Part shown: positions 1 through 46,432 of the stretch, piece after piece
Layout of the letters: the number at the start of each line of letters is the position of its first letter
Position numbering within the stretch: the first letter of the stretch is position 1
Source: Niveibacterium umoris
GTDB taxonomy: Bacteria > Pseudomonadota > Gammaproteobacteria > Burkholderiales > Rhodocyclaceae
Reading direction: 5' to 3'
Length of the DNA: 64,000 nucleotides
NCBI RefSeq assembly: GCF_014197015.1
Contig: NZ_JACIET010000001.1
Span: 992,001-1,056,000 of the forward strand
Notes under the pieces: model-generated
Database searches by the model: none
Told to the model about the DNA's origin: nothing
What the model saw: the letters and a program-made list of their open reading frames with translations, nothing else
Program-made: the position numbers and the translations under genes

Positions 1-845
1 TCAACATCGGCGCCGAGGGCCAGCTGATTATGGGCGCGATCTTCGGTGGCGGCGTCGCAATAGCATTCCCCGAATCGCAAAGTGCCTGGCTACTGCCGGC
101 TATGGTGCTCGCTGGCGCAACCGGTGGTGCGCTGTGGGGCGCGATACCGGCACTGCTCAAGACGCGATTCAACGCCGAAGAGACCCTCACCACGCTGATG
201 CTGGCCTACGTCGCCAACCTGGTGCTTGCCTGGCTGGTGAGCGACCCGTGGCGTGATCCGGGCGGCATGAATTTCCCGCAGTCGGTGATGTTCGGCGACG
301 CCGCGCTGTTCTCGATGCTGTTCGAGGGGCTGCGCCTGAACACCTCGGTGTTCATCACCGGGGTCGCCGTGCTGCTGTTCTGGCTGTTCGTGTCGAAGAG
401 CTTCCTGTCCTACCAGGTCACGGTCGGTGGCCTTGCGCCGCAGGCCGCGCGCTACGCGGGCTTCCCGGCCAGCCGCACGGTCTGGCTCAGCCTGGTGCTC
501 TCCGGCCTCACCGCCGGGCTGGCCGGCATAGGCGAAGTCGCCGGCCCGGTCGGGCAACTGAACCTGAACATCTCGCCGGGGTATGGCTACGCCGCGATCA
601 TCGTTGCCTGGATCGGGCGTCTACACCCTGTTGGCATTGTGTTCTCTGGCCTCTTGATGGCGCTGATCTACCTCGGCGGTGAAGCCGCGCAGATGGCGCT
701 GCAAACACCGGCCGCGATCACCGGCATCTTCCAGGGCATGTTGTTGTTCTTCCTGCTTGCCTGCGACGTGTTCATCGACTTCCGCCTGCGCAAGCCACTC
801 GAAAAACGCCGCGCCGCCGCGCTCGCCAAAAAGGCCATCGCATGA
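1..845 (+). CDS. ABC transporter permease, BMP/nucleoside type (5' end outside window)
   Basis: Partial gene: the open frame runs in from the left edge (first full codon at base 3, reading NIGAEGQL), so the true start is outside. The protein is very hydrophobic, with several membrane spans, and the NIGAEGQ string is typical of the cytoplasmic loop of permeases that work with BMP-family binding proteins (YufP/NupB-like). It would form the inner-membrane pore for a nucleoside or purine-like solute. Its stop overlaps the next permease start (ATGA), so the two are translationally coupled. The ATPase and binding protein expected upstream are not visible. Substrate is inferred from the deaminases downstream. 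Confidence 0.85.
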   Translation, partial: NIGAEGQLIMGAIFGGGVAIAFPESQSAWLLPAMVLAGATGGALWGAIPALLKTRFNAEETLTTLMLAYVANLVLAWLVSDPWRDPGGMNFPQSVMFGDAALFSMLFEGLRLNTSVFITGVAVLLFWLFVSKSFLSYQVTVGGLAPQAARYAGFPASRTVWLSLVLSGLTAGLAGIGEVAGPVGQLNLNISPGYGYAAIIVAWIGRLHPVGIVFSGLLMALIYLGGEAAQMALQTPAAITGIFQGMLLFFLLACDVFIDFRLRKPLEKRRAAALAKKAIA

Positions 846-1768
846 TCGAACACCTGATCCCGATTCTCGCCGGCACCTTGGGGGCTGCCACGCCGTTGAT
901 CTACGCCGGGCTCGGCGAACTGGTTGCCGAACGCAGCGGCGTCATCAACCTCGGCGTCGAAGGCATGATGCTGATCGGCGCCGTCGCCGGCTTTGCCGCC
1001 GCGGTGGAAACCGGTGGCGGCGCAGGGGCCGGCTTCCTTGCGGGCGCTGCCGCCGGCACCTTCGCGGCGCTGTGCTTCGCGGTGCTCACGATGTCGCTGG
1101 CCGCGAACCAGTCCGCTGCGGGGCTCGCACTGACGATCTTCGGCATCGGCCTCTCCGCCTTTATCGGCCAGCACTACGTCAGCCACAGCCTGCCCGGCCT
1201 CAAGCCGGTTGCGCTGCCGCTGCTCTCGTCCATTCCGCTACTCGGCCCGGTGTTCTTCACTCAGGACATGGGCGTGTACCTGTCCTTCGTGTTCTTCGGC
1301 ATCGTCTGGTGGGTGCTGGCGAAGACCAAGCTGGGCCTGATGCTGCGCGCGGTTGGCGAATCGCCCGAATCGGCGCATGCGCTGGGCTTTCCAGTGTTCG
1401 CGATCCGCTATGGCGCGGTGCTGTTCGGCGGTGCGATGGCAGGCATCGCGGGGGCCTACCTCTCGACCGTCTACACCCCGATGTGGGTGCAGAACATGAG
1501 CGCCGGGCGCGGCTGGATCGCCGTGGCGCTGGTCGTATTCGCAACCTGGAGGCCGGGCCGCCTGCTGCTCGGCGCCTGGCTGTTCGGCGGCGTCACGATC
1601 CTGCAGTTCCATGCGCAAGCGCTGGGCGTGCGGGTGCCATCGCAGTTGCTCTCCGCCCTGCCCTACATCGCCACCATTGTGGTGCTGGTGCTGATCTCGC
1701 GCGACCGCAAGCTGCTGCAGCTGAACCTGCCCGCCTCGCTCGGCAAGAGCTTCGTGCCAGGGCGCTGA
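842..1768 (+). CDS. ABC transporter permease, BMP/nucleoside type
   Basis: 308-residue integral membrane protein and partner of the preceding permease; the start codon sits inside the upstream stop (ATGA). The N-terminal third carries GERSGVINLGVEGMM-like sequence (visible as ERSGVINLGVEGMM), the hallmark of YufQ/NupC-type permeases of the BMP transporter group. Several Ala/Gly/Leu-rich spans cover the protein. Together with the first permease it should form a heterodimeric channel. The deaminase gene follows after 55 bases, so the transported solute is probably a purine base or nucleoside; that is inference from context. Confidence 0.87.
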   Translation: MIEHLIPILAGTLGAATPLIYAGLGELVAERSGVINLGVEGMMLIGAVAGFAAAVETGGGAGAGFLAGAAAGTFAALCFAVLTMSLAANQSAAGLALTIFGIGLSAFIGQHYVSHSLPGLKPVALPLLSSIPLLGPVFFTQDMGVYLSFVFFGIVWWVLAKTKLGLMLRAVGESPESAHALGFPVFAIRYGAVLFGGAMAGIAGAYLSTVYTPMWVQNMSAGRGWIAVALVVFATWRPGRLLLGAWLFGGVTILQFHAQALGVRVPSQLLSALPYIATIVVLVLISRDRKLLQLNLPASLGKSFVPGR

Positions 1769-1823: not shown

Positions 1824-3206
1824 ATGACGACGCTTTTGCTGCAGCACGCCGATGTGCTGCTGACGATGGACGCTGCGCGCCGCGAGATCGCGGACGGCGC
1901 AGTGCTGATCCGCGATGGCGTGATCGAAACCGTCGGCACCACCGATGAACTCGCCGTGCTCTGCGCGCACGCCGGTGTGGCGCCGGACGAAACGATCGAG
2001 CTGCGCGGTCATGTGCTGATGCCCGGCCTCGTAAACACCCATCACCACATGTACCAGAGCCTGACCCGCGCAATGCCTGCCGCGCAGGACGCGGAGCTGT
2101 TCGACTGGCTGCGCGCGCTCTACCCGGTCTGGGCCGGGCTCACGCCGGAGATGATCCATGCTTCGACGCAGACGGCGATGGCGGAGCTGATCCTTTCTGG
2201 CTGCACGACTTCGTCCGACCACCTCTACATCTATCCGAACGGCAGCCGGCTCGACGATTCGATCGCCGCCGCGCAGGAGATCGGCATGCGCTTCACCGCG
2301 TGCCGCGGCAGCATGAGCGTGGGCCAGTCGAAAGGCGGCTTGCCGCCGGACGAAGTGGTGGAGCGCGAGGACGCGATCCTCACCGACACCCGGCGACTGA
2401 TCGAGACCTGGCACGACCCGCGGCGGCATTCGATGCTGCATGTGGCGGTGGCGCCCTGCTCGCCCTTCTCGGTGTCGCGTGAGTTGATGCGCGAATCGGC
2501 CGAGCTGGCGCGCCACTACGGCGTGCGCCTGCACACCCACCTCGCCGAGAACGACAAGGACATCTCGTACAGCCGCGAAGTCTTCGGCATGACGCCGGCC
2601 GAATACGCTCAATCGCTGGGCTGGACGGGCGACGATGTATGGCACGCGCACTGCGTGAAACTGGACGCGCCGGGCATTGCGCTCTTCGCACGCAGCGGCA
2701 CCGGCGTGGCGCACTGCCCATGCTCGAACATGCGACTGGCCTCTGGCATCGCGCCGATTCCGCAGATGCGCGCGGCGGGGGTGCCGGTCGGTCTGGGCGT
2801 CGACGGTTCGGCATCGAACGACGGTGCGCACATGCTAGGCGAAGCGCGGCAGGCGATGCTGCTGGCGCGCGTCGGCCACGGCCCCGCTGCGCTCAGCGCG
2901 CGCCAGGCGCTGGAACTGGCAACGCTGGGCGGCGCCCGCGTGCTGGGCCGCGACGACATCGGCGCGATCGCGCCCGGCATGAGCGCAGATTGCGTTGCGT
3001 TCGCGACTGGTGGCGTCAGCCTTGCGGGCGGCGCGGTGCACGACCCGGTTGCCGCGCTGCTGTTCTGCACCCCGCCGCAGGTGAGCCTGTCGGTGATCAA
3101 CGGCCGTGTGGTGGTGCGAGAAGGTCAGCTCACGACGATCGACCTGCCACGGGTACTGGAGCGCCACAACCGCTTCGCGATCGCGCTCGCAGCGGGGCAC
3201 GCATGA
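1824..3206 (+). CDS. 8-oxoguanine deaminase (amidohydrolase family)
   Basis: 460-residue metal-dependent amidohydrolase. The metal motif NTHHHMYQSL lies near residue 73, followed by the family strings HTHLAEN and GVDGSASND. The HHHMYQSLTRA region and the overall length match bacterial 8-oxoguanine deaminases, which turn 8-oxoguanine into urate and ammonia and are related to the triazine hydrolases TrzN/AtzB. AGGAC lies about 6 bases before the ATG. It sits between a purine-type transporter and guanine deaminase (4-base overlap), which supports a purine substrate. A related role on isocytosine-like or triazine compounds cannot be excluded. Confidence 0.8.
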   Translation: MTTLLLQHADVLLTMDAARREIADGAVLIRDGVIETVGTTDELAVLCAHAGVAPDETIELRGHVLMPGLVNTHHHMYQSLTRAMPAAQDAELFDWLRALYPVWAGLTPEMIHASTQTAMAELILSGCTTSSDHLYIYPNGSRLDDSIAAAQEIGMRFTACRGSMSVGQSKGGLPPDEVVEREDAILTDTRRLIETWHDPRRHSMLHVAVAPCSPFSVSRELMRESAELARHYGVRLHTHLAENDKDISYSREVFGMTPAEYAQSLGWTGDDVWHAHCVKLDAPGIALFARSGTGVAHCPCSNMRLASGIAPIPQMRAAGVPVGLGVDGSASNDGAHMLGEARQAMLLARVGHGPAALSARQALELATLGGARVLGRDDIGAIAPGMSADCVAFATGGVSLAGGAVHDPVAALLFCTPPQVSLSVINGRVVVREGQLTTIDLPRVLERHNRFAIALAAGHA

Positions 3207-4522
3207 ATCGCCAGCTTCACCTCGTTCGCGGAACGGTGCTGCACTTCTTGCGCGACCCGGGGCCTACCGATGACGCTTCGGCCTGCGAATTCTTCGAGGA
3301 TGGTGGACTGCTGATCGAAGCCGGCCACGTCAGTGCGGTCGGTGACTGGGATCGGGTAGCAGCGCTGCTGGAACCGGAAGCCCGCGCGCACGCCCAGTTG
3401 CACGATTACCGAGGCCACCTGATCCTCCCGGGGCTGGTCGACACGCACATCCACTACCCGCAGGTAGGGGTGCTGGGTTCCTTCGGGCGGCAACTGATCG
3501 ACTGGCTCACCGAGTACACCTTCCCGGCCGAGACCGCGTTTTCAGATCCGGCGGTGGCACATCAGTGTGCCGAGTTCGTGGTGCGGAGGATGCTCGCGCA
3601 CGGCACCACCACGGCATCGGTGTTCGCCACGGTGCATCCGCATTCGGTCGACGCCTTCTTCGAGGCCGCGTCCCACTTCGATCTGCGCATGCTCTGCGGC
3701 AAGGTGATGATGGATCGCAACTGCCCGGATTCACTGCGCGACACCGCCGTGAGTGCCGAACACGACAGCCGCGCGTTGATCGAGCGCTGGCACGGCCACG
3801 GCCGCCTGCGCTACACGCTGACCCCGCGCTTCGCGCCCACCTCGACGCCACAGCAGCTGGACGTGGCCGGTGCGCTGTACGCCGCGTGGCCGGACCTGCA
3901 TGTGCAATCGCACCTCGCGGAAAACAAACGCGAGATCGAATGGGTGCGCGAGCTCTTCCCCGACCGACGTAGCTACCTTGATGTGTATGCGCACCACGGC
4001 TTGATCGGCCCGCGCACGATCTACGGCCACTGCGTGCATCTGGATGAGGCCGAACGCAAGTGGATGGCCGACACCCAAACGGCGGCCGCGTTCTGCCCGA
4101 CGTCGAACCTGTTCCTCGGCAGCGGCATGTTCGACTACGGCGCCGCACGCGAAGCGGGCATGGCGGTGGGGCTGGCGACCGACGTCGGTGGCGGCACGTC
4201 CTTCTCGCTGATCCGCACGCTGGGCGAGGCCTACAAGGTGTCGCAGTTCTGCGCGCAGCCGCTTGCGCCGCTCTCGGCCTGGTATCTGGCGACGCTGGGG
4301 GGCGCCAGGGCTTTGGGGCTCGATCGCTTCATCGGCAACTTTGTGGCCGGCAAGGAAGCGGACTTCGTTGTGCTGGACCTGCACGCCACCGAAGAGCTGG
4401 CATGGCGGATCTCACATGCCTCGACGCTGGCAGAACGCCTGTTCGCCCTTCAAACGCTGGGTGACGAGCGCTGCGTCGTGGCCACTCACGCGATGGGACG
4501 ACCGGTGTTCCGCCGCGACTAA
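3203..4522 (+). CDS. guaD: Guanine deaminase
   Basis: 439-residue amidohydrolase that converts guanine to xanthine and ammonia in the cytoplasm. The first zinc motif reads PGLVDTHIHYPQ, the typical GuaD form, followed by HLAENKREIEW, YGHCVHLD and ATDVGGGTSFS, all characteristic of the family. The chosen ATG overlaps the stop of the 8-oxoguanine deaminase gene (ATGA), indicating translational coupling; an upstream extension of the same frame is the shadow of that gene. Xanthine would need a dehydrogenase, not present here, before entering the urate pathway encoded downstream. Confidence 0.95.
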   Translation: MNRQLHLVRGTVLHFLRDPGPTDDASACEFFEDGGLLIEAGHVSAVGDWDRVAALLEPEARAHAQLHDYRGHLILPGLVDTHIHYPQVGVLGSFGRQLIDWLTEYTFPAETAFSDPAVAHQCAEFVVRRMLAHGTTTASVFATVHPHSVDAFFEAASHFDLRMLCGKVMMDRNCPDSLRDTAVSAEHDSRALIERWHGHGRLRYTLTPRFAPTSTPQQLDVAGALYAAWPDLHVQSHLAENKREIEWVRELFPDRRSYLDVYAHHGLIGPRTIYGHCVHLDEAERKWMADTQTAAAFCPTSNLFLGSGMFDYGAAREAGMAVGLATDVGGGTSFSLIRTLGEAYKVSQFCAQPLAPLSAWYLATLGGARALGLDRFIGNFVAGKEADFVVLDLHATEELAWRISHASTLAERLFALQTLGDERCVVATHAMGRPVFRRD

Positions 4523-5007: not shown

Positions 5008-5844
5008 ATGAAAGCAAAACTTTCGATCGGCGCCTTTGCCGTATTCAGCGCCCTCGCCGCCACACCGGCCTTCGCCGCGGACTGGAGCGACACCTCGGCC
5101 AGCTGGCGTTATGGCACGCACTTCGCCGAACCGGCGATTGAAGGGGCCATCAAGAAGAACATCTTCGCGCTGACCCATGTCAGCGGCTACAAATACGGCA
5201 CGAACTTCTTCAACGTCGATTTCCTGCTGTCGGACGAAAACGACCCGGCAGCAGGCGGCAAGGGTGGCGCGCAGGAAGTCTATGCCGTCTATGCGAACCA
5301 ATTGCACCTGGGCAAATTGACTGGCTCGGATCTCTCTTTCGGCCCGGTTCGCGACATCGCCCTCACCACGGGTTTTGACGCCAGCGCCAAGAACACCGAC
5401 TTCGCCGCGCGCGTCCGCAAGTTCACCTTCGGCCCGACACTCAAGTTCGGCGTACTGGACGGCTGGTTCGACCTGAGCCTGCTGTACTACAAGGAAACCA
5501 ACCACAACGGCATCGTCGGCACGGACGTGAACTTCGACAGCACCTACCGCGTCGCAGGCGCGTGGGACATCCCCTTCAGTGCAGGTCCGGTGCCGCTGAG
5601 CTTCAACGGTTTCTTCACCTATACCGGCGAAAAGGGTAAGGACGGCTTCGGCGCTGATACCAAGCCGGAAACGCTGGCTGACCTGTTCCTGATGGCCGAC
5701 GTGGGTGCGCTGGCAGGCAAGAAGGGCACGTTCAAGGCCGGTATCGGTTACGAGTACTGGACGAACAAGTTCGGCAACGACCACACCCAGGTCATCGGCT
5801 CGAACGCCTACACCCCGATGATCAAGGCGGAAGTTCACTTCTGA
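5008..5844 (+). CDS. Tsx-like nucleoside-specific outer membrane channel
   Basis: 278 residues, starting with a clear signal peptide (MKAKLSIGAFAVFSALAATP, cleavage likely after AFA) and an AGGGAGA ribosome site 6 bases before the ATG. The rest alternates aromatic and polar residues as in a small beta-barrel and ends in a C-terminal Phe (EVHF), the usual outer-membrane insertion signal. The opening WSDTSASWRYGTHF and NIFALTHVSGYKYGTN match the Tsx/OmpK family, which passes nucleosides across the outer membrane. It probably feeds the purine uptake and degradation genes on both sides. Ligand preference is inferred. Confidence 0.82.
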   Translation: MKAKLSIGAFAVFSALAATPAFAADWSDTSASWRYGTHFAEPAIEGAIKKNIFALTHVSGYKYGTNFFNVDFLLSDENDPAAGGKGGAQEVYAVYANQLHLGKLTGSDLSFGPVRDIALTTGFDASAKNTDFAARVRKFTFGPTLKFGVLDGWFDLSLLYYKETNHNGIVGTDVNFDSTYRVAGAWDIPFSAGPVPLSFNGFFTYTGEKGKDGFGADTKPETLADLFLMADVGALAGKKGTFKAGIGYEYWTNKFGNDHTQVIGSNAYTPMIKAEVHF

Positions 5845-6022: not shown

Positions 6023-7843
6023 TCATTTTGCGCGCTGCGCGAGGTACGCACGCCAGCCGCCAAAATGGGTAATGTCTTCGGCCCCCTCGGCCGCGATCGC
6101 CTCGCAAGTAAAGCCCTGCACCGTCGATCCGTCCGCGAGTTTCACGACGCCAATACCGAGCGGCGCCGGAATAGCGGCAACGAAGCTGCCAAACTCGCGT
6201 GCCGGCATCTCCCACACTTCCATCTGCACTGCCCCGCCGCCCGTTCCTACGCGGATCATGCCGGGTCGGAACGGCGGCCCGCCGGGTAAAGCCACGAACT
6301 TGTATTCCGGGGCAGATTCGACAGCCGCAATCAACCGCGCGCCGCGGCTGGTGAGTTGTCCGTTCAAGGGCAGACCACTGAGGTGGGCACCGCACACCGC
6401 GACGCGCACTTGCCCGCTGGGCAGCGACAGAGGCGCCGATGCCACCGGCTGCGGCAGCCCTGTTGCGCCAAGCGGCGCGCCGAGCGCGCGCTGCATGCGC
6501 CCAGCGAGCCGCAGCAACGGGCCATCCTGGTGCGCTGGTGCAAACAGCGTCACGCCGAATGGCAGCCCATCCGTCTGAAAGCCGGCCGGCACTGCAGTCG
6601 CCGCGTAGTCGAGCAGGTTCATGAAGTTGGTATAGGTGCCGAGATTCGCGTTGAGCCGGATCGGATCGGACAGCATCTCGGCGATCGTGTAGATCGTGCC
6701 GGCAGAAGGCGTGAGGATCGTATCTACGTCCTGCCACACGGCATCGCACTGCCGCTTGGCGGCCTTCAGCCTGTAGCCGTAGTCGTATGCATCAGCGGCC
6801 GACCAGCGTTCCGCGCCGCCGATGATCTCGCGGATCACCGGCAACAAGGCATCCGGCTGCGCATCGAAGAAACCGCGGATCGCCGCATAGCGTTCGGCGA
6901 CCCAAGGGCCCTCGTACAGCATCTTCGCAGTATCGAGAAAGGGCTGCAGGTCGACTTCGACGATCTCGCCGCCGAGCGCGGCAATCCGCTCAATCGCTTC
7001 AGCGAACAGGCGTTCGGCCTCGGCATTGCCAAAGAAGGCCAGCTGCGAGGCCTTCGGCACGCCAACGCGGAATGATGTAACGCGCCCAAAGTCGAAGCCA
7101 TGCCCTTCCTGCTTGCGGGCAAAACAATCGTCGGCATCAAAGGCCGCGGCCACGCTCGTCACCAACTCGGCATCGTCGGCCGTAAGCGCGAAGACCGATA
7201 CGGTATCGAGCGAGCGGCAGGCCGGCACAACGCCGGTTGTGGATAGCCAACCCAGGGTCGGTTTGTGCCCGATCAGATTATTGAAAGCCGCAGGCACCCG
7301 GCCGGAGCCCGCGGTGTCGGTGCCCAGCGCGAAGCTGACATAGCCCTTCGCCACCGCCACCGCAGACCCCGAACTCGACCCGCCTGAGATGTATTCAGGA
7401 TTGAAGGCGTTGCGGCACGCGCCCCAGGGCGATCGGGTGCCGTTAAGCCCGGTGGCGAACTGGTCGAGGTTGGTCTTGCCGATCGGGATCGCACCCGCAT
7501 CGATCAGACGCTGCACGACGAATGCGCTGGCCTGTGGCGTGTAGGCAAACTCGCGGCAGGCGGCGGTCGTCGGCACACCGGCCAGATCGATGTTGTCCTT
7601 GATCGCAAACGGGATGCCGTAGAGCGGCAGCGACGCGGGGTCGCGCCCGGCGAGCGCCTGCGCGTAGCGGCGGACGGCCTCATCCGACAGGCGCGTGATC
7701 CACACACAGTTCGGATCTTCTGCGGTGCGCCGAAGCACCTCGTCCACCACATCGAGCGGTGTCAGCCTGCCTTCGCGATACGCCGTCTGGAGACTGGCGA
7801 TATCCAGGCTCTGCGCGTGCAGCGCCGCGTCGGGTTTGCTCAT
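6023..7843 (-). CDS. atzF: Allophanate hydrolase (AtzF-type)
   Basis: 606 residues, the usual length for stand-alone AtzF. The N-terminal amidase-signature domain has the catalytic triad Lys82 (FAIKDN), Ser156 (GGSSSGS) and Ser180 (GTDTAGSG), with the same spacing as in AtzF. The C-terminal domain (from about residue 460) is the AtzF-specific one, with VAVCGAHLSGLPLN and a conserved LPGGPP. It hydrolyses allophanate to two ammonia and two CO2. There is no biotin carboxylase domain, so it does not serve ATP-dependent urea amidolyase. Its ATG overlaps the upstream hydrolase stop (ATGA); as last gene of the biuret operon it completes release of nitrogen. Confidence 0.93.
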   Translation of the reverse strand: MSKPDAALHAQSLDIASLQTAYREGRLTPLDVVDEVLRRTAEDPNCVWITRLSDEAVRRYAQALAGRDPASLPLYGIPFAIKDNIDLAGVPTTAACREFAYTPQASAFVVQRLIDAGAIPIGKTNLDQFATGLNGTRSPWGACRNAFNPEYISGGSSSGSAVAVAKGYVSFALGTDTAGSGRVPAAFNNLIGHKPTLGWLSTTGVVPACRSLDTVSVFALTADDAELVTSVAAAFDADDCFARKQEGHGFDFGRVTSFRVGVPKASQLAFFGNAEAERLFAEAIERIAALGGEIVEVDLQPFLDTAKMLYEGPWVAERYAAIRGFFDAQPDALLPVIREIIGGAERWSAADAYDYGYRLKAAKRQCDAVWQDVDTILTPSAGTIYTIAEMLSDPIRLNANLGTYTNFMNLLDYAATAVPAGFQTDGLPFGVTLFAPAHQDGPLLRLAGRMQRALGAPLGATGLPQPVASAPLSLPSGQVRVAVCGAHLSGLPLNGQLTSRGARLIAAVESAPEYKFVALPGGPPFRPGMIRVGTGGGAVQMEVWEMPAREFGSFVAAIPAPLGIGVVKLADGSTVQGFTCEAIAAEGAEDITHFGGWRAYLAQRAK

Positions 7844-8529
7844 GCGCGCCCCTTTGCGAGCAGCGTTTCGCCGGCGCCGGTCAGCGCCGCGAGACTCGCA
7901 GTCCAGCCCACGATGCCGCCTTGCGCTCGCACCATATCGAGCGTCGTCTGCTTGAAGTGCGGGAAGTAGCTGGCGGTGGCTTCTTCGACCAGCAGGCAGT
8001 TGTAGCCGCGGTCGTTCGCTTCACGCATCGTCGTCTGCACGCAGACCTCGGTGGTGACGCCGGCAAAGATCAGGGTATCGACGTTGCGGCGCGCGAGCCA
8101 TTCACCCAGATCCGTCGCATAGAACGCACCCTTGCCCGGCTTGCGCAACACACGCTCGCCCGCCAGGGGCGCCAGTTCGGGCACGAAGTCGCTACCGGTT
8201 TCGCCATCGATCAGGATGCGGCCCATCGGCCCGGCATCGCCGATGCGCTTGCCAGGCGCGCCGCGCTGCAGCTTGGCGGGCGGACAGTCAGACAGGTCCG
8301 GCGCATGAGCCTCCTTGGTGTGCACGATGCTCATGCGCACACTGCGCGCCCAATCAAGCAATTGCCGCGCAGGGGCAATGCACCCCGCAAGCTGAGACAC
8401 ATCGTTGCCCAGAGCCTCGCCAAAACCACCCGGCAGCAGGAAGTCGCGCTGCATGTCGATCATGATCAGCGCGCTGCGCGTGGTCTCGAAGCTGAACGGC
8501 GCGGGTTGTGCGTCGATACCCAGTTCCAT
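7840..8529 (-). CDS. Cysteine hydrolase of the isochorismatase-like superfamily; candidate triuret hydrolase (TrtA-like)
   Basis: 229 residues, started at the ATG with a strong AGGAGG 12 bases ahead; a longer upstream frame runs into a repeat and was rejected. Catalytic residues of the isochorismatase-like fold are all present: Asp25 (MIDMQRDF), Lys130 (LRKPGKGAF) and Cys163 (TTEVCVQTT). It is a clear paralogue of the BiuH encoded 1.75 kb upstream but lacks BiuH-specific strings. A BiuH paralogue that hydrolyses triuret (TrtA) is known in proteobacteria, and genes for triuret, biuret and allophanate hydrolysis together fit this operon. It overlaps atzF by four bases. A second biuret hydrolase or ureidoacrylate-type amidase is the alternative. 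Confidence 0.6.
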   Translation of the reverse strand: MELGIDAQPAPFSFETTRSALIMIDMQRDFLLPGGFGEALGNDVSQLAGCIAPARQLLDWARSVRMSIVHTKEAHAPDLSDCPPAKLQRGAPGKRIGDAGPMGRILIDGETGSDFVPELAPLAGERVLRKPGKGAFYATDLGEWLARRNVDTLIFAGVTTEVCVQTTMREANDRGYNCLLVEEATASYFPHFKQTTLDMVRAQGGIVGWTASLAALTGAGETLLAKGRA

Positions 8530-8537
8530 AGCCCCTC

Positions 8538-8684
8538 CTAAGGAAGATCTGAATAAGTGGCTGCGACGGCGCATCGCTGCGTTACGGCGCGCTCACTCCT
8601 GCGCCTATCCAACAGATATGTCTTGGTCGCTGCGCGCGCCGCGCCTTGCGCTGCATCCGTCTCGCTCACTTGTTCAGACCTTCC

Positions 8685-8689
<5 letters not shown>
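8538..8689. repeat. Long imperfect palindromic repeat (REP/MITE-like)
   Basis: The left end CTAAGGAAGATCTGAATAAG and the right end CTTGTTCAGACCTTCCCTAAG-type sequence (8669-8689) are inverted copies with few mismatches. The inner parts are also GC-rich and partly self-complementary, so the whole of about 152 bases can fold back. No transposase is present. It lies within the biuret operon, between the ATPase gene and the second hydrolase, and its right end supplies the ATPase stop codon (8685-8687). Repeats with GGAAGGTCTGAACAAGT ends recur in Rhodocyclales genomes, from memory; no second copy was seen here. Confidence 0.65.
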
Positions 8690-10268
<1,579 letters not shown>

Positions 10269-10278
10269 GGCGCGCGCC

Positions 10279-10974
10279 TCAGGCGTCCGGCCATGCGGCC
10301 AGCGCAGCGAGCACCGAGGCCGAATCCGCCACCGCGCCGAACACACCACCTTGCATCAGCACCATGTTGATCGCGGCAAGGTGATTGTTGTAGTCGGTCG
10401 CGCCGCAACCATCGGTGACCAGCAGGCATTCGAAGCCGCGGTCGTTCGCTTCGCGCATCGTGGTGTGCACACACACATCGGTGGTGATGCCGGTGAGCAC
10501 GATGTTGCGGATGCCGCGGGTGTGCAGCACCAGCTCCAGATCGGTCGCGCAGAAGGAACCCTTGCCGGGTTTGTCGATGATCACTTCGCCCGGCAGCGGG
10601 TAGAGCTCGGGAATGATGTCCCAGCCCGGCTCGCCGCGTACCAGGATGCGGCCACAAGGCCCGGCGTCGCCAATCCCCGCACCGATGCGCTGCGAGCGCC
10701 AGCGCTTGTTCGCCGGCAGATCCGACAGATCGGGGCGATGGCCCTCGCGGGTGTGGATCACGTGCGCACCGGCCGCACGGAACTTCGACAGCAGCTTGCC
10801 GATCGGTTCGATCGGCGCGCGGGTCAGCGAGATGTCGTAGCCCATCGTGTCGACATAGCCGCCCTTGCCGCAGAAGTCGGTCTGCATGTCGATGATGACC
10901 AGCGCGGTGTTCGCGGGCGTCAGCGCACCATCGAACGGCCAGGGATAGGGCTTTGATTCCAGGGTCAGGCTCAT
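10279..10974 (-). CDS. biuH: Biuret amidohydrolase
   Basis: 231 residues; matches the characterised rhizobial BiuH in length and in long diagnostic strings such as [41 protein letters not shown] and [13 protein letters not shown]. The catalytic triad is Asp29, Lys135 and Cys168, at the BiuH spacing. It converts biuret to allophanate and ammonia in the cytoplasm; AtzF downstream then acts on allophanate. It is sandwiched between the second permease (16-base gap) and the ATPase (10-base gap) of a BMP-type transporter, so uptake of biuret or a related ureide is the simplest reading. Confidence 0.9.
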
Positions 10975-10990
10975 GGTCGTGCCTCGGTCA

Positions 10991-11911
10991 TCAGCGATTC
11001 AGGGATAGCTCGCCCGGCGCGCCCTTGAGGCTGGTATCGCGCGAACAGGTCAGCGTCATCAGCAGCAGGGTCAGCGCGTAGGGCGCAGCATTGAAGAGGT
11101 AGTAGCCGGACGAGATGCCGACCGACTGCAAGGCCGGCCCGATCGCCCCGGCGGCGCCGAACATCAGCGCAGCCAGCACACAGCGGCGCGGCTGCCAGCG
11201 CGCGAAGATCACCAGCGCAACGGCCATGATCCCCTGCCCGTTCGAGAGCCCTTCGTTCCAGCTGCCCGGATAGAACAGCGACAGGAAGGCGCCGCCCACC
11301 CCGGCCAGGGCACCACCAAATACTGTGGCCGCGATGCGGATCGGGATGACCGCGGCGCCGGCCGCGCGTGCGGCGGCCTCGCTATCGCCAACCAGGCGCA
11401 GCGTCAGGCCGAGTCGGGTATTCGCGAACGCCCAGTGCAGGGCAAACGCCAGCACCAGACCCGCGACGAAGAGCGGGTTGATGTCGAGCGCCGAACGCAG
11501 CGCGGGCGAATCGCTCCACGCTCCGAAGTGAAACGCGGTGAGCGTGGGCGCCTGAGGCTGTATGTAGGCCTTGCCCCAGTAGAAGGCCAAGCCGGTGCCG
11601 AGAAGCATCAGGGCGATGCCGAGCGCGATGTCGTTAACCCGCCGCAAGCTCGCGAGCAGCCCGTGCAACAGGCCGAACACGGCGCCGGCACCGGCCGCGG
11701 CGAGCACCCCGAGCCACGGCTGGCTGCTATGCAGCGAGGCGGCGTACGCACTCATCGCCCCCATCACCAGCGTGCCTTCGAGGCCAAGGTTGATGCGCCC
11801 CGCCTTCTCGGTGATCGTTTCGCCCAGGCTCACGAACAGGAAGGGTGTGCTGACGCGGATCGCGCCGCCCAGCATGGCCAACAGCACCGCAGTGATCGCA
11901 TCGACGTGCAT
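10991..11911 (-). CDS. ABC transporter permease (BMP/nucleoside type, second system)
   Basis: 306 residues, highly hydrophobic, with [20 protein letters not shown] near the N-terminus, the diagnostic loop of YufQ/NupC-like permeases. The start at 11911 is chosen for the GAGGAGG 5 bases upstream; the longer frame lies over the preceding gene. It pairs with the permease encoded immediately upstream (10-base gap) and is followed by biuH. This is a distinct paralogue of the permease at 842-1768, so the window carries two separate transporters of this type. Confidence 0.88.
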
Positions 11912-11921
11912 CGGGGCCTCC

Positions 11922-13028
11922 TCAGACGCTGACGTCAGTCTTGGCTGCCAGCGCTGGCGTGGGCGAACGCCGCGGCGTTGCCAGCTGCGGCAGCCGCCAC
12001 GCATGGCCGCGCAGGGTTTCGATCGCGATCAGCACGACGAACAAGATGCCCTGCAGCACCAGCACGGTGGCGTCCGGCATGTCCAGCCGGCGCTGTAGCA
12101 AGCTGCCGGCGGCGCCAATGCCGCCGATGAGGATGGCGGCGGGGACCACGGCCAGCGGGTTCTGCCGTGCAATGAAGGCGATCAGGATGCCCGCATGGCC
12201 GTAGCCGACCAGCACCGACGCGTTGCATGCGCCATGCACCGCCGCGACTTCGATCATGCCGGCAAGCCCGGCCATGGCGCCGCCAGCAGCGCACAGCCCG
12301 ATCACCCACGGTGTGACAGCGAGCCCCGCCATCGCCGCGGCGCGCGGGTTGCCGCCCACCACGCGCACGGCAAATCCCCACACGGTGAAGCGCAGGAAGA
12401 CCCAGGCCAGCAGTGCACACACGACACCGACCGCGAGCCCCACATGGACATCGAGCCCCGGCAGTGCGCCCAGCATCGCTTCCGGCGCCAAGGGATAGGT
12501 CGAGGGCTTGTTGAGACTCGCCGGATCGCGCAGCGGCCCCTCGACAAAATGATTCATCAAGGCCACTGCGATGTACGAGAGCAGCAGGCTGGAGATCGTC
12601 TCATTGACGCCGCGCCACTGACGCAGCGCACCCGCAAAGCCAATCAGCACCCCACCGGCAAGCATGCCGGCCAAGGCCATGGCCAGCCACAGCAGCAGGT
12701 TCGGGCTGCCCGCGAGTGGCACGGCCACCGCCGCGGCGCCCAGCGCGCCAAAGGCCAGCGCTCCTTCGCCGCCGATGATCACCAGGCCTGCGCGCGCTGG
12801 CAGCGCAACCGCAAGGCCGGTGAGAATCAGCGGTGCCGCGCGCAGCAGGGTGTTCTGCCAGCCGAATGCATCGCCAAACGCACCGGCGAAAATGGTTTCG
12901 AGCACCTCCAACGGCGCCTGCCCTTCCAGCGCCACAAACAGCGAAAACAACATCAACGCGATCGCCAGCGCTGCAAGCGGCAGCAGCGCATCGATCAACG
13001 GACGTGGGCGGGCAGGCGCGGCACTCAT
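11922..13028 (-). CDS. ABC transporter permease (BMP/nucleoside type, second system)
   Basis: 368 residues, about ten hydrophobic segments, with a GLVIIGGEGALAFGAL string around residue 80 equivalent to the NIGAEGQ loop of the first-system permease. GAGG lies 9 bases before the ATG. It is the YufP/NupB-like half of the permease heterodimer. It follows the binding-protein gene by 10 bases and precedes the second permease by 10, consistent with one transcript from about 14.2 kb. Substrate is inferred to be biuret, triuret or a urate-derived compound from the embedded hydrolases. Confidence 0.88.
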   Translation of the reverse strand: MSAAPARPRPLIDALLPLAALAIALMLFSLFVALEGQAPLEVLETIFAGAFGDAFGWQNTLLRAAPLILTGLAVALPARAGLVIIGGEGALAFGALGAAAVAVPLAGSPNLLLWLAMALAGMLAGGVLIGFAGALRQWRGVNETISSLLLSYIAVALMNHFVEGPLRDPASLNKPSTYPLAPEAMLGALPGLDVHVGLAVGVVCALLAWVFLRFTVWGFAVRVVGGNPRAAAMAGLAVTPWVIGLCAAGGAMAGLAGMIEVAAVHGACNASVLVGYGHAGILIAFIARQNPLAVVPAAILIGGIGAAGSLLQRRLDMPDATVLVLQGILFVVLIAIETLRGHAWRLPQLATPRRSPTPALAAKTDVSV

Positions 13029-13038
13029 CTGCGTGGCC

Positions 13039-14160
13039 TCAGACCGAACCGATCACGCCTTCGACGAGGTAGTTCATGCCTTCAAGCTCGATCGCCTGCT
13101 GCGCGAAGCTCTTGCCTGCGGCGATCACTTCCTTGCCGGTGTTGTCTTTCAGCGGGCCCTTGAAGATCACGAATTCGCCCTTGAGCATCTTCGCCTTCAC
13201 CTCGTCGGCGGCCTTTCGTGCCTTGTCGCCCACCGCAGCCCCGTAGGGCGACATCTTCACGAAGCCCTCTTTCAGACCGCCGCGCACGAAGTTCGGGAAG
13301 GGTTTGCCCTCCTGCAGCGCCTTCACGAAGGTCGTATTGGGGGTCACCCAGTCCCATTCCGCGCCGGTGAGGTAGCCCTTCGGGGCCAGTTTGGCCTGGC
13401 TGGCGTGGTAGCCACAGCTGAAGGCGCCACGGCGCTCCGCGGTTTCGACCACGACCTTGGGGCCATCCACATGGCAGGTCAGCACGTCGCAGCCCTGGTC
13501 CAGCAGGCTGTTGGCCGCTTCCGCCTCCTTCACCGGCATCGCCCAATCACCGGTGAAGATCACGCGGGTCGTCGCATTCGGGTTCACCGAACGCGCACCC
13601 AGGGTGAAGGCGTTGATGTTGCGCAGCACCTGCGGAATCGGCTTGGCCGCCACAAAGCCGAACTTGCCCGTCTTGCTGGTGAGTCCGGCGACGATGCCGC
13701 TCAGGTATTCACATTCGTCGATGTAGCCGAAGTAGCTCGCGACGTTCTTCGGGTGCTTGCCTTCCGACCACAGGCCGCCACAGTGCGCGATGTGCGCGTT
13801 GGGGTACTTCTGCGCCACTTTCAGCACGTGCGGATCGAAGTAGCCGAACGAGGTGGCGAACACCACGGCGGCCTTGTCCTGCACGATCATCGCTTCCATC
13901 GACTTTTGCACAGCAACGGTTTCCGGCACTTTCTCTTCTTCGATGACCTTCACGCCGGGCAGCTTCTTCAATGCCGCAGCAGCCTGCGCGTGGGCCTGGT
14001 TGTATCCGAAGTCGTCACGCGCACCGACATAAATGAACCCGACCGTGATGCCGCCCGCCGCCAGCGCGTCGCGCACCGACGCGGGCAGCAGCCCCAGCGC
14101 AGGCGCCGCCGCCGCGGCCTTGATGAAATTGCGACGCGAAAAGCTGGAACGATCCTGCAT
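13039..14160 (-). CDS. BMP-family ABC transporter substrate-binding protein, Tat-exported
   Basis: 373 residues. The N-terminus has a twin-arginine motif (FSRRNFIK, Arg9-Arg10), a hydrophobic Ala/Leu stretch and a likely AxA site near residue 35, so the protein should be exported folded by Tat. There is no lipobox, unlike many BMP proteins. The mature part has GITVGFIYVG, RDDFGYNQAH and FATSFGYFDPHVLKVAQ, typical of BMP/PnrA-like binding proteins for nucleosides and related solutes. It is the first gene of the transporter-hydrolase operon. A palindromic candidate operator lies about 70 bases upstream. Confidence 0.9.
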   Translation of the reverse strand: MQDRSSFSRRNFIKAAAAAPALGLLPASVRDALAAGGITVGFIYVGARDDFGYNQAHAQAAAALKKLPGVKVIEEEKVPETVAVQKSMEAMIVQDKAAVVFATSFGYFDPHVLKVAQKYPNAHIAHCGGLWSEGKHPKNVASYFGYIDECEYLSGIVAGLTSKTGKFGFVAAKPIPQVLRNINAFTLGARSVNPNATTRVIFTGDWAMPVKEAEAANSLLDQGCDVLTCHVDGPKVVVETAERRGAFSCGYHASQAKLAPKGYLTGAEWDWVTPNTTFVKALQEGKPFPNFVRGGLKEGFVKMSPYGAAVGDKARKAADEVKAKMLKGEFVIFKGPLKDNTGKEVIAAGKSFAQQAIELEGMNYLVEGVIGSV

Positions 14161-14645
14161 GGCGTTTCTCCCTGATCGATGTCATTGGCCGGAGGGCGTA
14201 TCACTGACAGCGCATTTCTTGTACGCCGTCTTGTATGCAAGATACGCAAAGCGCGTGCCAGTCTTGTCATCGAACCCGCCGCGATGTGCCTGCCAAGGCT
14301 GGAGGGCGCGCGGGCAGTACGCAGAAGGCTGAGCGGGCAACATGGGTCGTACGGGATGCGCCGGCGGCGCAATCGGGAGCACGCGGGAACCCCCCGATTT
14401 ACGAGCCGCCTTGGTGCGGCGCGCACCGTTGGCGTGCTCCATCGCGCTGGAGAACGAGGCGTGACGACGACGAAGCTGTCCGGTGCGACAGCCCGTTCTT
14501 AAGGACCGCAAAAGGAGGCAGCGAGACGGCCGCCTCGCCACGTTTCGCACACAAAGCGACTCCGCCAACGCGAAGAACGGACTTGGTGGCGGCAGCGTCG
14601 CGCTTGAGCTGCGCCTACCGGAGCAGCCACGTCGCTACGACCTGC
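14161..14645. other. Intergenic region upstream of the BMP transporter operon
   Basis: 485 bases between the binding-protein start and the end of the GntR gene, both on the minus strand. The only signal I can support is the operator-like palindrome at 14229-14246. The remainder is GC-rich and shows no convincing gene; open frames here lack ribosome sites and recognisable products. Confidence 0.6.
14229..14246. promoter_or_regulatory. Candidate GntR operator, site 1
   Basis: The sequence TCTTGTATGCAAGATACG contains TCTTG-N4-CAAGA inverted arms. It matches 14 or more of 18 positions with site 2 (15827-15844), which lies upstream of the gene preceding gntR. The form TTGT-N2-CAA with short central spacing fits FadR-type GntR operators. 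It is 69 bases before the binding-protein start codon. Confidence 0.55.
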
Positions 14646-15398
14646 TTAACCGCGCCCTGTTCGGCGCGCTTCGTAGAGCTTATGCAGCGTGATCTTGCGC
14701 ACCTCTGCGCGGCTCGCCTCGATGTGAGCCGCAAGTAATGAGGTCGCCCGCTCGCTGCTGCGCCGCCGGATGGCGCGCAGGATCGCGGCGTGTTCCGCGT
14801 AGGTGGTCTCGATGCGCTCGCGCTGCGTGAAATCGAGGCGCCGCACGATCCGGATGCGCTCGGTCACGTCGGCATGCACCCGCGCCATCTCGGGATTGCC
14901 AGCGGCCTCGACCAGCGCCATGTGGAAGGCTTCGTCCTGCAGCGCCACGCTGCGCCCGTCGTTGTCGCGCTCCGACTCATCAAGCAGCCAATAAGCTTCC
15001 AGACGGGTCAAAGCGGAGAGGGATTCCTTGCGATCGCACAAGCGGCGCACCGATTCCAGTTCGATCAACTGACGCAGGTCGTAGAGGTTCTCGAAGCGAT
15101 CGAAATCGTAGGGGTTCACGCTCCAGCCATTGCGGAACTGAACGCTGAGGAAACCCTCGCGCTGCAACTGGTACAGTGCTTCGCGCACCGGTGTGCGTGA
15201 CACGCCTAGCCGCTCGGCAAGCTCCGTCTCGGTAAAGCGGTCGCCGGGAAGCAGCCGAAACTCAGCAATGTCGTCCTTGATCGCGGCATAAACCGCCTGG
15301 GCTCGGGTCGCCGGCTGTTCCGCAGCACGCGCGCTGGCAACGCTGCGGCGCCCCCCTTTCGACGGCAGCTTGGGCTGCGAGGTATGACGCGCTGTCAT
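14646..15398 (-). CDS. GntR-family transcriptional regulator (FCD domain)
   Basis: 250 residues. An N-terminal winged helix (about residues 38-100) has the GntR signature TETELAERLGVSRTPVREAL, followed by an all-helical FCD ligand-binding domain with the metal-site pattern of Asp and His residues (DEAFHMALVEAAGN, YAEHAAIL). The ATG is chosen because it overlaps the upstream AtzH-like stop (ATGA); a longer frame reads through that gene. The two genes form one transcript. Likely targets are its own operon and the BMP transporter/biuret operon downstream, since both carry the same palindrome. The effector is unknown; a purine or ureide is likely. Confidence 0.88.
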   Translation of the reverse strand: MTARHTSQPKLPSKGGRRSVASARAAEQPATRAQAVYAAIKDDIAEFRLLPGDRFTETELAERLGVSRTPVREALYQLQREGFLSVQFRNGWSVNPYDFDRFENLYDLRQLIELESVRRLCDRKESLSALTRLEAYWLLDESERDNDGRSVALQDEAFHMALVEAAGNPEMARVHADVTERIRIVRRLDFTQRERIETTYAEHAAILRAIRRRSSERATSLLAAHIEASRAEVRKITLHKLYEARRTGRG

Positions 15399-15811
15399 GC
15401 TTGCGACTCGTTCTTCAGGCTTACATGCGCAGCAACGATGCGCCAGCCACCATGCTCCGGGAGATCCGATCTCACCCAGGTCTGGCTCTGTCGCCCACCG
15501 CCTTCCCGATCGGTATAGCGAAACACCAGGTTCACGGTACCGAGATCCGTGCCGTACGTGCTGACCTCGCAACGCACGATCCGCCTTGGCGGGCTCTGCA
15601 GTGGCAAGCTGGCGCGGAAGGCGACCACAGCGTCGTAGCCGTACTGCTCGTCTGCCAAACCGAAGCGCAGTGTGTTTTCCCCCGGCATGAAGAAACGATC
15701 CAACGCAAGGCGATCGTTACCCACCAGGGCCACCTCATAGCGTTCGGCAATCGCCGTCAGCTCATTCCGGATGGCAGGAATATTGATCTGATCCGAAGGA
15801 ATCGGCATCAC
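15395..15811 (-). CDS. AtzH/HpxZ-like protein (SnoaL/NTF2 fold, DUF3225)
   Basis: 138 residues. It matches the HpxZ/AtzH family through YGYDAVVAFRA, STYGTDLGTVNLVF, QSQTWVR and GGWRIVAAHVSL. HpxZ is linked to oxalurate use in urate-degrading enterobacteria, and AtzH is reported as a decarboxylating amidohydrolase acting on 1,3-dicarboxyurea in cyanuric acid breakdown. Usually the gene sits beside an AtzE/HpxY-type amidase; none is adjacent here. It overlaps the GntR gene by four bases and has a candidate operator 16 bases upstream. A role in clearing carboxylated ureides from the triuret/biuret route is plausible inference. Confidence 0.8.
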   Translation of the reverse strand: MMPIPSDQINIPAIRNELTAIAERYEVALVGNDRLALDRFFMPGENTLRFGLADEQYGYDAVVAFRASLPLQSPPRRIVRCEVSTYGTDLGTVNLVFRYTDREGGGRQSQTWVRSDLPEHGGWRIVAAHVSLKNESQA

Positions 15812-16140
15812 TCACCTTGCGTGCAATTTTGTGTACAAGATAAGAATAACGCAGGTTCCGGGCCACCGCGCTTGGCGCGCGATTGCGTGCTTCGCGATAG
15901 CGTCGCGTGCCAACACTCTGGTTGCGCATACGTGGGCCCGCTTCCGTCGGCGCAAGCGCGCCAGTCCTCGCCAAGCTGCGCATCCATGCACCATACGCCA
16001 GCGAAGGGACACCGCCGAAGGCACCACCTCGGTGCCGTGAGGCCAGACGTTTGCCTCATCGATGCATGGGAGATAGCCGCCACGTCCGTGGAACGAGACT
16101 TGCATAGCTTGCTGCGTTGCAACGTACAAACGGAAAGAAC
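15812..16140. other. Divergent intergenic region between the AtzH-like and LysR genes
   Basis: 329 bases separating divergently transcribed genes. It holds operator site 2 near its left end and should contain promoters for both directions. No gene or RNA is recognisable in the remainder. Confidence 0.55.
15827..15844. promoter_or_regulatory. Candidate GntR operator, site 2
   Basis: The sequence TTTTGTGTACAAGATAAG shares the pattern TYTTGTRTRCAAGATAMG with site 1. The core TTGTGTACAA is nearly palindromic. It lies 16 bases before the ATG of the AtzH-like gene, where binding would block transcription of that gene and of gntR, implying autoregulation. Confidence 0.55.
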
Positions 16141-39689: not shown

Positions 39690-39711
39690 GGTAACGGGGA
39701 TAAATCCTGAC

Positions 39712-42229: not shown

Positions 42230-42238
42230 TCCGCGCTT

Positions 42239-43366: not shown

Positions 43367-43369
43367 GAA

Positions 43370-44620: not shown

Positions 44621-44630
44621 ATTTCCCGAA

Positions 44631-46249: not shown

Positions 46250-46432
46250 TTCGTTGCTTGATTTCGGTTTTACTTCATGTGCTACAAGTGACATCCGCAC
46301 GCAGCCCGATCGACCATCGCATGTCATACGGCGTGACTCTGCAGCCCGAATCGACCAACCGCGAAAATGCAGCCCAAGCCTGCGAGAACCAGGCCGCGGC
46401 GCTATTGCGTGCAGCCTGTCTGGGTTGCCAGA

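What the first reader, a model, noticed from the sequence alone, without database searches (positions are those of the whole stretch)
6023..14160. Transporter-coupled triuret/biuret/allophanate degradation operon
Seven minus-strand genes in one direction join a complete BMP-type ABC importer with BiuH, a second BiuH-like cysteine hydrolase and AtzF. BiuH is embedded between permease and ATPase genes. Known enzymology gives biuret to allophanate to ammonia; the second hydrolase may add triuret to biuret (TrtA). This would be an importer dedicated to biuret or triuret, which I do not know as characterised.
Basis: partly seen in the sequence, partly recalled or inferred. Interest (0 to 1): 0.82.

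Follow-up and report, generated by a model that had tools for sequence, protein, structure and literature searches.

The report
Triuret and biuret scavenging operon
A bacterium carries a compact gene set that very probably imports the urea-like compounds biuret and triuret and breaks them down to ammonia; the set is of a known kind, but its importer and its middle enzyme step are unproven and now have clear, testable predictions.

Summary
Seven minus-strand genes at 6023-14160 encode AtzF, TrtA, an ABC ATPase, BiuH, two permeases and a BMP-type binding protein. The second hydrolase is TrtA by residues (15/15) and tree (0.996). BiuH lies between permease and ATPase in 67/67 judgeable BiuH-first loci and in 27 of 28 loci found by the binding protein. 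That protein is closest to guanine-binding AtzT, but base-contacting Glu165 (36/37 purine-type) is absent from 94/94 operon-type relatives; biuret, triuret or both as ligand remain unproven. TrtA makes carboxybiuret, so a step was missing; the AtzH-like protein is the best candidate. Arg66 is lost almost only where AtzE is absent, and AtzH never shares a locus with a ChrR-type cupin (47, 34, 0 both, of 108). Against this: Arg66 variants of strain ADP's AtzH were not among the impaired ones, and 16 of 17 trtA loci away from the importer have neither helper. Such operons, with this importer, are in print (2020, 2025). Verdict: new member of a known kind, with testable additions.

The parts
6023..7843 (-). 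atzF, allophanate hydrolase (amidase domain plus C-terminal AH_C domain)
   Evidence: NF006043 872.9 bits (cut-off 487), PF01425 and PF21986 over cut-off
7840..8529 (-). trtA, triuret hydrolase of the isochorismatase-like family
   Evidence: best solved relative 6XIX TrtA, 278.9 bits against 186.9 for BiuH 6AZO; identical to 6XIX at all 15 active-site and diagnostic positions checked; TrtA clade support 0.996
8685..10268 (-). ABC importer ATPase (two nucleotide-binding halves), longest ORF to 10349
   Evidence: PF00005, 2 stretches; best NCBIfam NF047930, below cut-off
10279..10974 (-). biuH, biuret hydrolase
   Evidence: NF050097 419.2 bits over cut-off 370; all BiuH diagnostic residues
10991..11911 (-). 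ABC importer permease 1 (longest ORF to 12004)
   Evidence: PF02653
11922..13028 (-). ABC importer permease 2
   Evidence: PF02653
13039..14160 (-). BMP-type periplasmic binding protein with TAT signal; predicted biuret/triuret binder
   Evidence: PF02608 124.3 bits, PF10518 24.7; closest 6PI5 AtzT and 3S99; Glu165 of AtzT is Gln here
14230..14241 (-). palindrome CTTGCATACAAG, possible GntR/FCD operator before the binding-protein gene
   Evidence: pattern search (7 matches in the window against 2.4 expected, this site counted on both strands); TTGTATACAA-type site upstream of this gene in 11/35 and 14/64 loci against 2.0% and 1.2% of background windows
14646..15398 (-). GntR-family regulator with FCD domain
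   Evidence: PF00392 and PF07729 over cut-off
15395..15808 (-). atzH-like NTF2-fold protein; candidate carboxybiuret decarboxylase
   Evidence: PF11533 129.5 bits, only copy in the genome; Tyr22, Arg46, Arg63, Arg73 kept, Arg66 to Leu, read from the alignment
15828..15839 (-). second copy of the palindrome (CTTGTACACAAA) before atzH-gntR
5008..5844 (+). possible accessory: Tsx-fold outer-membrane channel, convergent with atzF
   Evidence: no Pfam match at E<=1; AlphaFold model (pLDDT 79.7) best matches Tsx 1TLW, TM 0.66/0.72; single copy in genome; relatives in 11 of 108 triuret/biuret loci and 2 of 32 purine-type loci

Best explanation
This is a nitrogen-scavenging operon for open-chain ureides. 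A BMP-type ABC importer brings biuret and/or triuret into the cytoplasm (inferred). TrtA deaminates triuret to carboxybiuret (assigned by sequence). The AtzH-like protein decarboxylates carboxybiuret to biuret faster than the spontaneous reaction (inferred). BiuH converts biuret to allophanate (assigned by sequence) and AtzF hydrolyses allophanate to ammonia and CO2 (assigned by sequence). The GntR/FCD protein probably regulates both atzH-gntR and the importer-enzyme genes through a TTGTATACAA-type palindrome (inferred). The operon lies between purine-to-urate and urate-to-allantoin genes, so triuret formed by chemical oxidation of urate is a plausible natural source (inferred).
For: TrtA: 15/15 checked residues identical to 6XIX; 83/83 TrtA-like and 92/92 BiuH-like proteins (grouped by identity to the window proteins) follow the published TrtA/BiuH split at positions 35, 41, 160, 187 and 205. 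TrtA clade 0.996, BiuH clade 0.872. Importer linkage: searching by binding protein alone, 27 of 28 fetched regions carry the full importer with BiuH between permease and ATPase (samples of 398 and 274 genomes). Pocket: Glu165 in 36/37 purine-type and 0/94 operon-type proteins. AtzH-like step: in a second sample 34/34 AtzH from loci with an AtzE-like ORF keep Arg66 and 3/3 AtzE-less ones in this operon context lack it. Cupin and AtzH never share a locus: 34 and 47 of 108, 0 both, with about 9 switches inferred on a BiuH tree. Neighbours are 8-oxoguanine deaminase, guanine deaminase, hydroxyisourate hydrolase, OHCU decarboxylase and allantoinase PuuE, all over cut-offs.
Against: No ligand or activity was measured. 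The binding protein is 38% identical to guanine-binding AtzT and keeps its aromatic sandwich, Ser97 and Phe98, so a purine or other planar ligand is not excluded. Positions near the pocket did not differ between the two clades more than the rest of the protein (4/17 against 18/71, p = 1.0). Biuret and triuret cannot be told apart by co-occurrence: the 12 genomes tested whose importer is not directly followed by trtA all have trtA elsewhere or further along. In the first AtzH sample 2 AtzE-bearing loci (L022, L026) lack Arg66 and one AtzE-less locus (L074) keeps it. In 16 of 17 trtA stretches without importer genes there is neither cupin nor AtzH within about 1.5 kb. 9 of 82 trtA-bearing operon loci also have neither (L015 and L061 are about 5 kb). 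Here the AtzH gene heads the unit with gntR rather than following trtA as it usually does.
Confidence: 0.72

Rival explanations
1. The importer is an ordinary purine or nucleoside importer, as published annotation has it, that happens to share an operon with biuret and triuret hydrolases.
For: Closest structures hold guanine or adenine; aromatic sandwich and Ser97 are kept; PMC12625717 calls the linked importer a nucleoside transporter.
Against: The genome has its own purine-type BMP protein at C1:984078-985109, a few kb from the purine genes; Glu165 is absent in 94/94 operon-type proteins; BiuH is in 27 of 28 regions found from the binding protein alone.
Confidence: 0.13
2. The importer takes up a cyclic ureide or triazine such as cyanuric acid, which is opened inside to carboxybiuret and biuret.
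For: AtzD is found in 14 of 40 BiuH-bearing genomes, and an AtzD-family gene lies between BiuH and ATPase in several Rhizobiales loci.
Against: 26 of those 40 genomes have no AtzD match; none is found in this genome (where no control rang) or in the two congeners searched with the model that rang elsewhere, G120 and G072.
Confidence: 0.07
3. The AtzH-like protein still acts on 1,3-dicarboxyurea as in strain ADP, with an unrecognised AtzE elsewhere, or is a leftover without a role in this pathway.
For: It lies in the same family, its genus falls within the AtzE-associated part of the AtzH tree, Arg66 variants of strain ADP's AtzH were not reported as weaker, and carboxybiuret decarboxylates without help with a half-life of about 20 min (PMC7948467).
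Against: The genome's best match to the AtzE model is below cut-off, 297 bits against 425.75; Arg66 is Leu here, and is likewise lost in other AtzE-less operons.
Confidence: 0.3

Closest known systems
trtA-biuH-atzF triuret operons of Herbaspirillum sp. BH-1 and Rhizobium leguminosarum 3841 (PMC7948467, parts 1-4 of 6 read)
   Same: TrtA, BiuH and AtzF in one cluster; diagnostic residues identical
   Different: The parts of the paper that I read do not describe the importer; here AtzH-like and GntR genes lead and atzF closes the run of genes
trtA-trtB-biuH-atzF with bmpA-nupABC in ammonia oxidisers (PMC12625717, passages only)
   Same: Same enzymes beside a BMP-type ABC importer; a gntR regulator is in its figure legend
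   Different: There the importer is taken for a nucleoside transporter, and the family of TrtB is not stated in the passages seen
AtzT, periplasmic binding protein of Pseudomonas sp. ADP (6PI5; PMC6834077, parts 1-3 of 5 read)
   Same: Closest solved structure by sequence, 38% identity, same fold and aromatic sandwich
   Different: Glu165, Thr46 and Tyr47 become Gln, Asn and Gln; AtzT binds guanine (KD about 110 nM)
AtzH of Pseudomonas sp. ADP (6BJT; PMC6219798, passages and section 14 read)
   Same: Same NTF2-fold family, Tyr22 and Arg46 kept
   Different: Arg66 and Arg96 replaced; no AtzE over cut-off in the genome

Membership tests
Triuret hydrolase TrtA | Catalytic triad Asp24, Lys129, Cys162 | tested here: met
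Triuret hydrolase TrtA | TrtA consensus Phe35, Asn41, Ala134, Glu160, Tyr187, Gln202, Ile205 instead of the BiuH consensus | tested here: met
   residues named in PMC7948467
Triuret hydrolase TrtA | Groups with characterised TrtA in a tree | tested here: met
   support 0.996
Triuret hydrolase TrtA | Hydrolysis of triuret with little activity on biuret | not testable with these tools
   needs an assay
Biuret hydrolase BiuH (10279-10974) | NCBIfam equivalog NF050097 over curated cut-off | tested here: met
   419.2 against 370
Biuret hydrolase BiuH (7840-8529) | NCBIfam equivalog NF050097 over curated cut-off | tested here: not met
   235.5 against 370; it is assigned to TrtA instead
Allophanate hydrolase AtzF | Amidase plus AH_C domains and equivalog cut-off | tested here: met
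   (TIGR02713 815.9 against 511.05)
Purine-binding BMP proteins of the AtzT/3S99 type | Fold and family | tested here: met
Purine-binding BMP proteins of the AtzT/3S99 type | Glu165 contacting the base | tested here: not met
   Gln in the window, 0/94 Glu in the clade
AtzH (1,3-dicarboxyurea decarboxylase) | PF11533 and catalytic Tyr22/Arg46 | tested here: met
AtzH (1,3-dicarboxyurea decarboxylase) | Accompanied by AtzE | tested here: not met
   best AtzE match in the genome below cut-off
AtzH (1,3-dicarboxyurea decarboxylase) | Arg66 in the pocket (a correlate of AtzE found here, not a published requirement) | tested here: not met
   Leu at 66
TrtB (carboxybiuret decarboxylase) | Homology to the published TrtB | not tested
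   family of TrtB not stated in the text available; source paper not seen

The most novel reading that the evidence does not exclude
The carboxybiuret step of triuret breakdown is filled by alternative, unrelated helpers: an AtzH-like protein that lost Arg66 (at least twice, once in this genus), a ChrR-type cupin, or the AtzE-AtzH pair. The co-encoded BMP importer is a ureide-specific branch whose key change is loss of the base-contacting Glu165, so a large group of importers annotated as nucleoside transporters in fact imports biuret and triuret, in some lineages with a Tsx-fold outer-membrane channel.
Probability: 0.38. Interest if true: 0.6.

Novelty: new member of a known kind. Interest (0 to 1): 0.42.

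Why it matters
Biuret and triuret reach soils as impurities of urea fertiliser, and triuret also forms from urate (PMC7948467). How bacteria take them up did not turn up in the searches made. If the prediction holds, an importer type that sits next to biuret hydrolase in many Pseudomonadota, annotated as nucleoside transport in the one paper seen, would be reassigned, and two small protein families (AtzH-like without Arg66, ChrR-type cupin) would gain a concrete reaction to test.

Tried and rejected
Importer specific for biuret because trtA is missing from part of the loci: rejected, since the 12 genomes tested all have trtA elsewhere or further along (in G743, G555, G602 and G610 it lies on the same contig within about 15 kb). 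Cyanuric acid as general substrate: set back by the lack of an AtzD match in 26 of 40 genomes. A general remodelling of the pocket: the count near the pocket is no higher than elsewhere (4/17 against 18/71); only the Glu165 change and the linkage are used. A cupin or AtzH next to every trtA: rejected by 16 of 17 stretches without importer genes. Promoter and terminator scans gave 0 promoter-like sites (0.9 expected) and 7 terminator-like sites (7.2 expected), nothing above chance. A broad CTTG-N4-CAAG scan was weak (13/35 and 14/64 against 16% of background windows), so I used the TTGTATACAA form chosen after seeing those hits; it is not an independent test.

Rows dropped: 41 of 43 new AtzH loci entered the count (two gave sequences already in the first sample).

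Papers: PMC7948467 parts 1-4 of 6; PMC6834077 parts 1-3 of 5; PMC6219798 passages and section 14; PMC12625717 passages only; PMC5806882 term search without matches; PMC7700744 search listing only. The papers that named trtB (Aukema et al. 2020) and surveyed biuret hydrolases (Robinson et al. 2018) are recalled, not seen. The numbering of AtzH follows the cloned construct, worked out from the primer and the alignment.
Full report
What is there. The window is G000:C1:992001-1056000 of a 4.80 Mb genome. The nearest named record is an uncultured Uliginosibacterium genome (L003, BiuH 98% identical). AtzF and BiuH pass their curated family cut-offs. The unit may continue upstream: a GntR/FCD regulator (14646-15398) and an AtzH-like gene (15395-15808) run in the same direction, the AtzH-like gene overlapping the regulator by 4 nt, with a 485-nt gap between regulator and binding-protein gene.

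The second hydrolase is TrtA. Its best solved relative is TrtA of Herbaspirillum sp. BH-1, 278.9 bits, against 186.9 bits for the Rhizobium BiuH and about 75 for RutB. Using the positions that Tassoulas et al. found to matter or to separate the enzymes (PMC7948467), the window protein is identical to 6XIX at all 15 positions checked and the 10279-10974 protein carries the BiuH set. Of proteins grouped by identity to the window's two, 83 of 83 TrtA-like and 92 of 92 BiuH-like follow the same split at positions 35, 41, 160, 187 and 205. In a 187-tip tree the TrtA clade has support 0.996 (it also takes in two proteins, from L024 and L078, that I had labelled BiuH-like but that carry TrtA residues at those positions) and the BiuH clade 0.872. 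The BiuH model scores the second hydrolase below cut-off (235.5 against 370), as expected for a sister enzyme.

The importer belongs with the enzymes. Of 80 loci found by BiuH, 64 carry the full importer, 66 TrtA, 41 AtzF, 40 AtzH and 13 AtzE; BiuH lies between a permease gene and the ATPase gene in 67 of the 67 where this can be judged. Some of the 16 without the full importer are short or at contig ends, but several have long flanks and no importer of this type. Searching by the binding protein instead, in samples of 398 and 274 genomes, relatives over the thresholds used fall into two groups: at least 52% identical, or at most 43%; values of 45-48% occur in loci reached by other routes (L033, L054, L170, L171). 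Of 28 fetched regions of the first group, 27 have the full importer with BiuH in the same place and one (L240) is an orphan binding protein. The second group lies mostly beside another permease set and, in part, purine genes; a few such regions show no recognised neighbour. The genome's own second BMP protein, C1:984078-985109, is of that purine type.

What the importer may bind. The AlphaFold model (mean pLDDT 88.9) is closest to AtzT and 3S99. AtzT holds guanine between Tyr45 and Trp194 with contacts from Ser97, Phe98 (backbone), Glu165, Asn218 and Asn220 (PMC6834077). In 94 operon-type and 37 purine-type proteins, the aromatic sandwich, Ser97, Phe98 and Asp220 are largely shared, but Glu165 is present in 36 of 37 purine-type and 0 of 94 operon-type proteins (Gln 82, Ser 8, Thr 3, Ile 1), and positions 46-47 are Asn-Gln in 94 of 94. 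The one purine-type exception, L138, sits beside an isochorismatase-like hydrolase. A planar but non-purine ligand such as biuret or triuret fits; this is inference. Near-pocket positions as a whole are not enriched for clade differences. Biuret and triuret cannot be separated by linkage: the 12 genomes tested whose importer is not directly accompanied by trtA all have it elsewhere or further along. Cyanuric acid is unlikely here: no AtzD match in this genome (with no control ringing) or in two congeners, while the same model rings in 14 of 40 BiuH-bearing genomes.

The missing step. TrtA forms carboxybiuret, which decarboxylates by itself with a half-life of about 20 min (PMC7948467). The AtzH-like gene, the only one of its family in the genome, is a candidate to speed this. 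AtzH of strain ADP acts after AtzE, on 1,3-dicarboxyurea; Tyr22 and Arg46 are reported as needed, and Arg66 is among the residues of the docked pocket, but its Ala and Lys variants are not among the five reported as weaker (PMC6219798). The genome's best AtzE match is below cut-off (297 against 425.75). In a first sample, AtzH keeps Arg66 in 11 of 13 loci with AtzE and lacks it in 29 of 30 trtA/biuH loci without AtzE (ten AtzE proteins confirmed over cut-off). In a second sample chosen by the AtzH family alone (46 of 398 genomes matched, 42 over cut-off), 34 of 34 proteins from loci with an AtzE-like ORF keep Arg66, although four of those AtzE calls rest on 31-34% identity; the three AtzE-less ones in an importer or trtA/biuH context have Leu, Cys and Cys; four with neither AtzE nor trtA/biuH in view have Arg. 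The window protein has Leu. On a midpoint-rooted AtzH tree Arg66 changed about three times: in a large triuret-operon clade, in this genus with L211, and in the two AtzE-bearing exceptions L022 and L026. The correlation is clear; its meaning for the substrate is inference, and the strain ADP variants speak against Arg66 alone deciding it.

A second helper fills the same slot elsewhere. Clustering of neighbouring ORFs found a protein of about 118 residues (ChrR-type cupin, PF12973). Of 108 operon loci, 34 have the cupin, 47 have AtzH and none has both (Fisher 1.6e-11, not corrected for relatedness). On a BiuH tree parsimony infers 9 switches between the two (shuffled mean 26, lowest 19), so the states are clumped by descent but not confined to one lineage. 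Where they follow TrtA on the same strand, the median gaps are -13 nt (27 cupins) and -3 nt (23 AtzH), measured on longest ORFs; in this window AtzH lies instead at the head with gntR. This suggests interchangeable roles. Against necessity, 9 of 82 TrtA-bearing operon loci have neither, and 16 of 17 trtA stretches without importer genes have neither within about 1.5 kb. Which of these families is the published TrtB I could not establish: the texts available do not say.

Regulation and surroundings. A TTGTATACAA-type palindrome occurs upstream of the binding-protein gene in 11 of 35 loci with a close GntR and 14 of 64 without, against 2.0% and 1.2% of background windows; the window has sites at 14230-14241 and 15828-15839. 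The form was chosen after a first scan, so this is a lead. On both sides lie purine genes: 8-oxoguanine deaminase, guanine deaminase, OHCU decarboxylase, hydroxyisourate hydrolase and allantoinase PuuE, all over cut-offs. Urate or purine genes near the operon also occur in L065, L234, L236 and L237. Convergent with atzF is an outer-membrane protein without a Pfam match whose model best matches the nucleoside channel Tsx (TM 0.66/0.72). It is single-copy in the genome, and relatives occur in 11 of the 108 loci but also in 2 of 32 purine-type loci.

What is known and what is new. trtA-biuH-atzF operons were published in 2020 (PMC7948467) and the same cluster with a BMP-type importer in 2025, as a nucleoside transporter (PMC12625717). 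No paper on bacterial biuret or triuret import turned up, and of the 12 papers listed (96 matched) none mentions cupin. The operon is therefore a new member of a known kind. The Glu165 change, the Arg66 correlation and the cupin/AtzH alternation are the additions I offer; none is experimentally shown.

Noticed in passing
window 30-1768 and 1824-4522; G000:C1:984078-985109: A separate purine-type BMP binding protein and permease pair near 8-oxoguanine deaminase and guanine deaminase; a useful in-genome control for ligand tests.
   Followed up: partly
window 5008-5844: Outer-membrane barrel with no Pfam match whose predicted fold best matches Tsx; recurs in triuret/biuret loci of several lineages.
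   Followed up: yes
36 loci, e.g. L006 8798-9844: A carbon-nitrogen hydrolase (PF00795) often lies between permease 1 and BiuH in other genomes; not seen in this window's operon.
   Followed up: partly
L004 10776-12556 and similar loci: An NMT1-like (NitT/TauT-type) binding protein and a permease are inserted in the operon of several loci (12 and 22 loci); substrate unknown.
   Followed up: no
L170 12246-13604, L171 11807-12937, L227 6264-7367: Binding proteins of 48-52% identity near trtA without recognised permease or ATPase genes alongside, possibly triuret-specific partners of a shared importer.
   Followed up: partly
L138: A BMP importer whose binding protein is 39% like the purine type and lacks Glu165 sits beside a distant isochorismatase-like hydrolase: maybe another ureide or amide importer.
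   Followed up: no
L091 and L093 (genomes G011, G024): trtA-like genes in genomes with no second, BiuH-like match at E<=1e-40; fate of biuret there is unclear.
   Followed up: no
window 36189-46327: Glycosyltransferase, polysaccharide-synthesis and EpsH-type exosortase genes, an apparent exopolysaccharide cluster.
   Followed up: no
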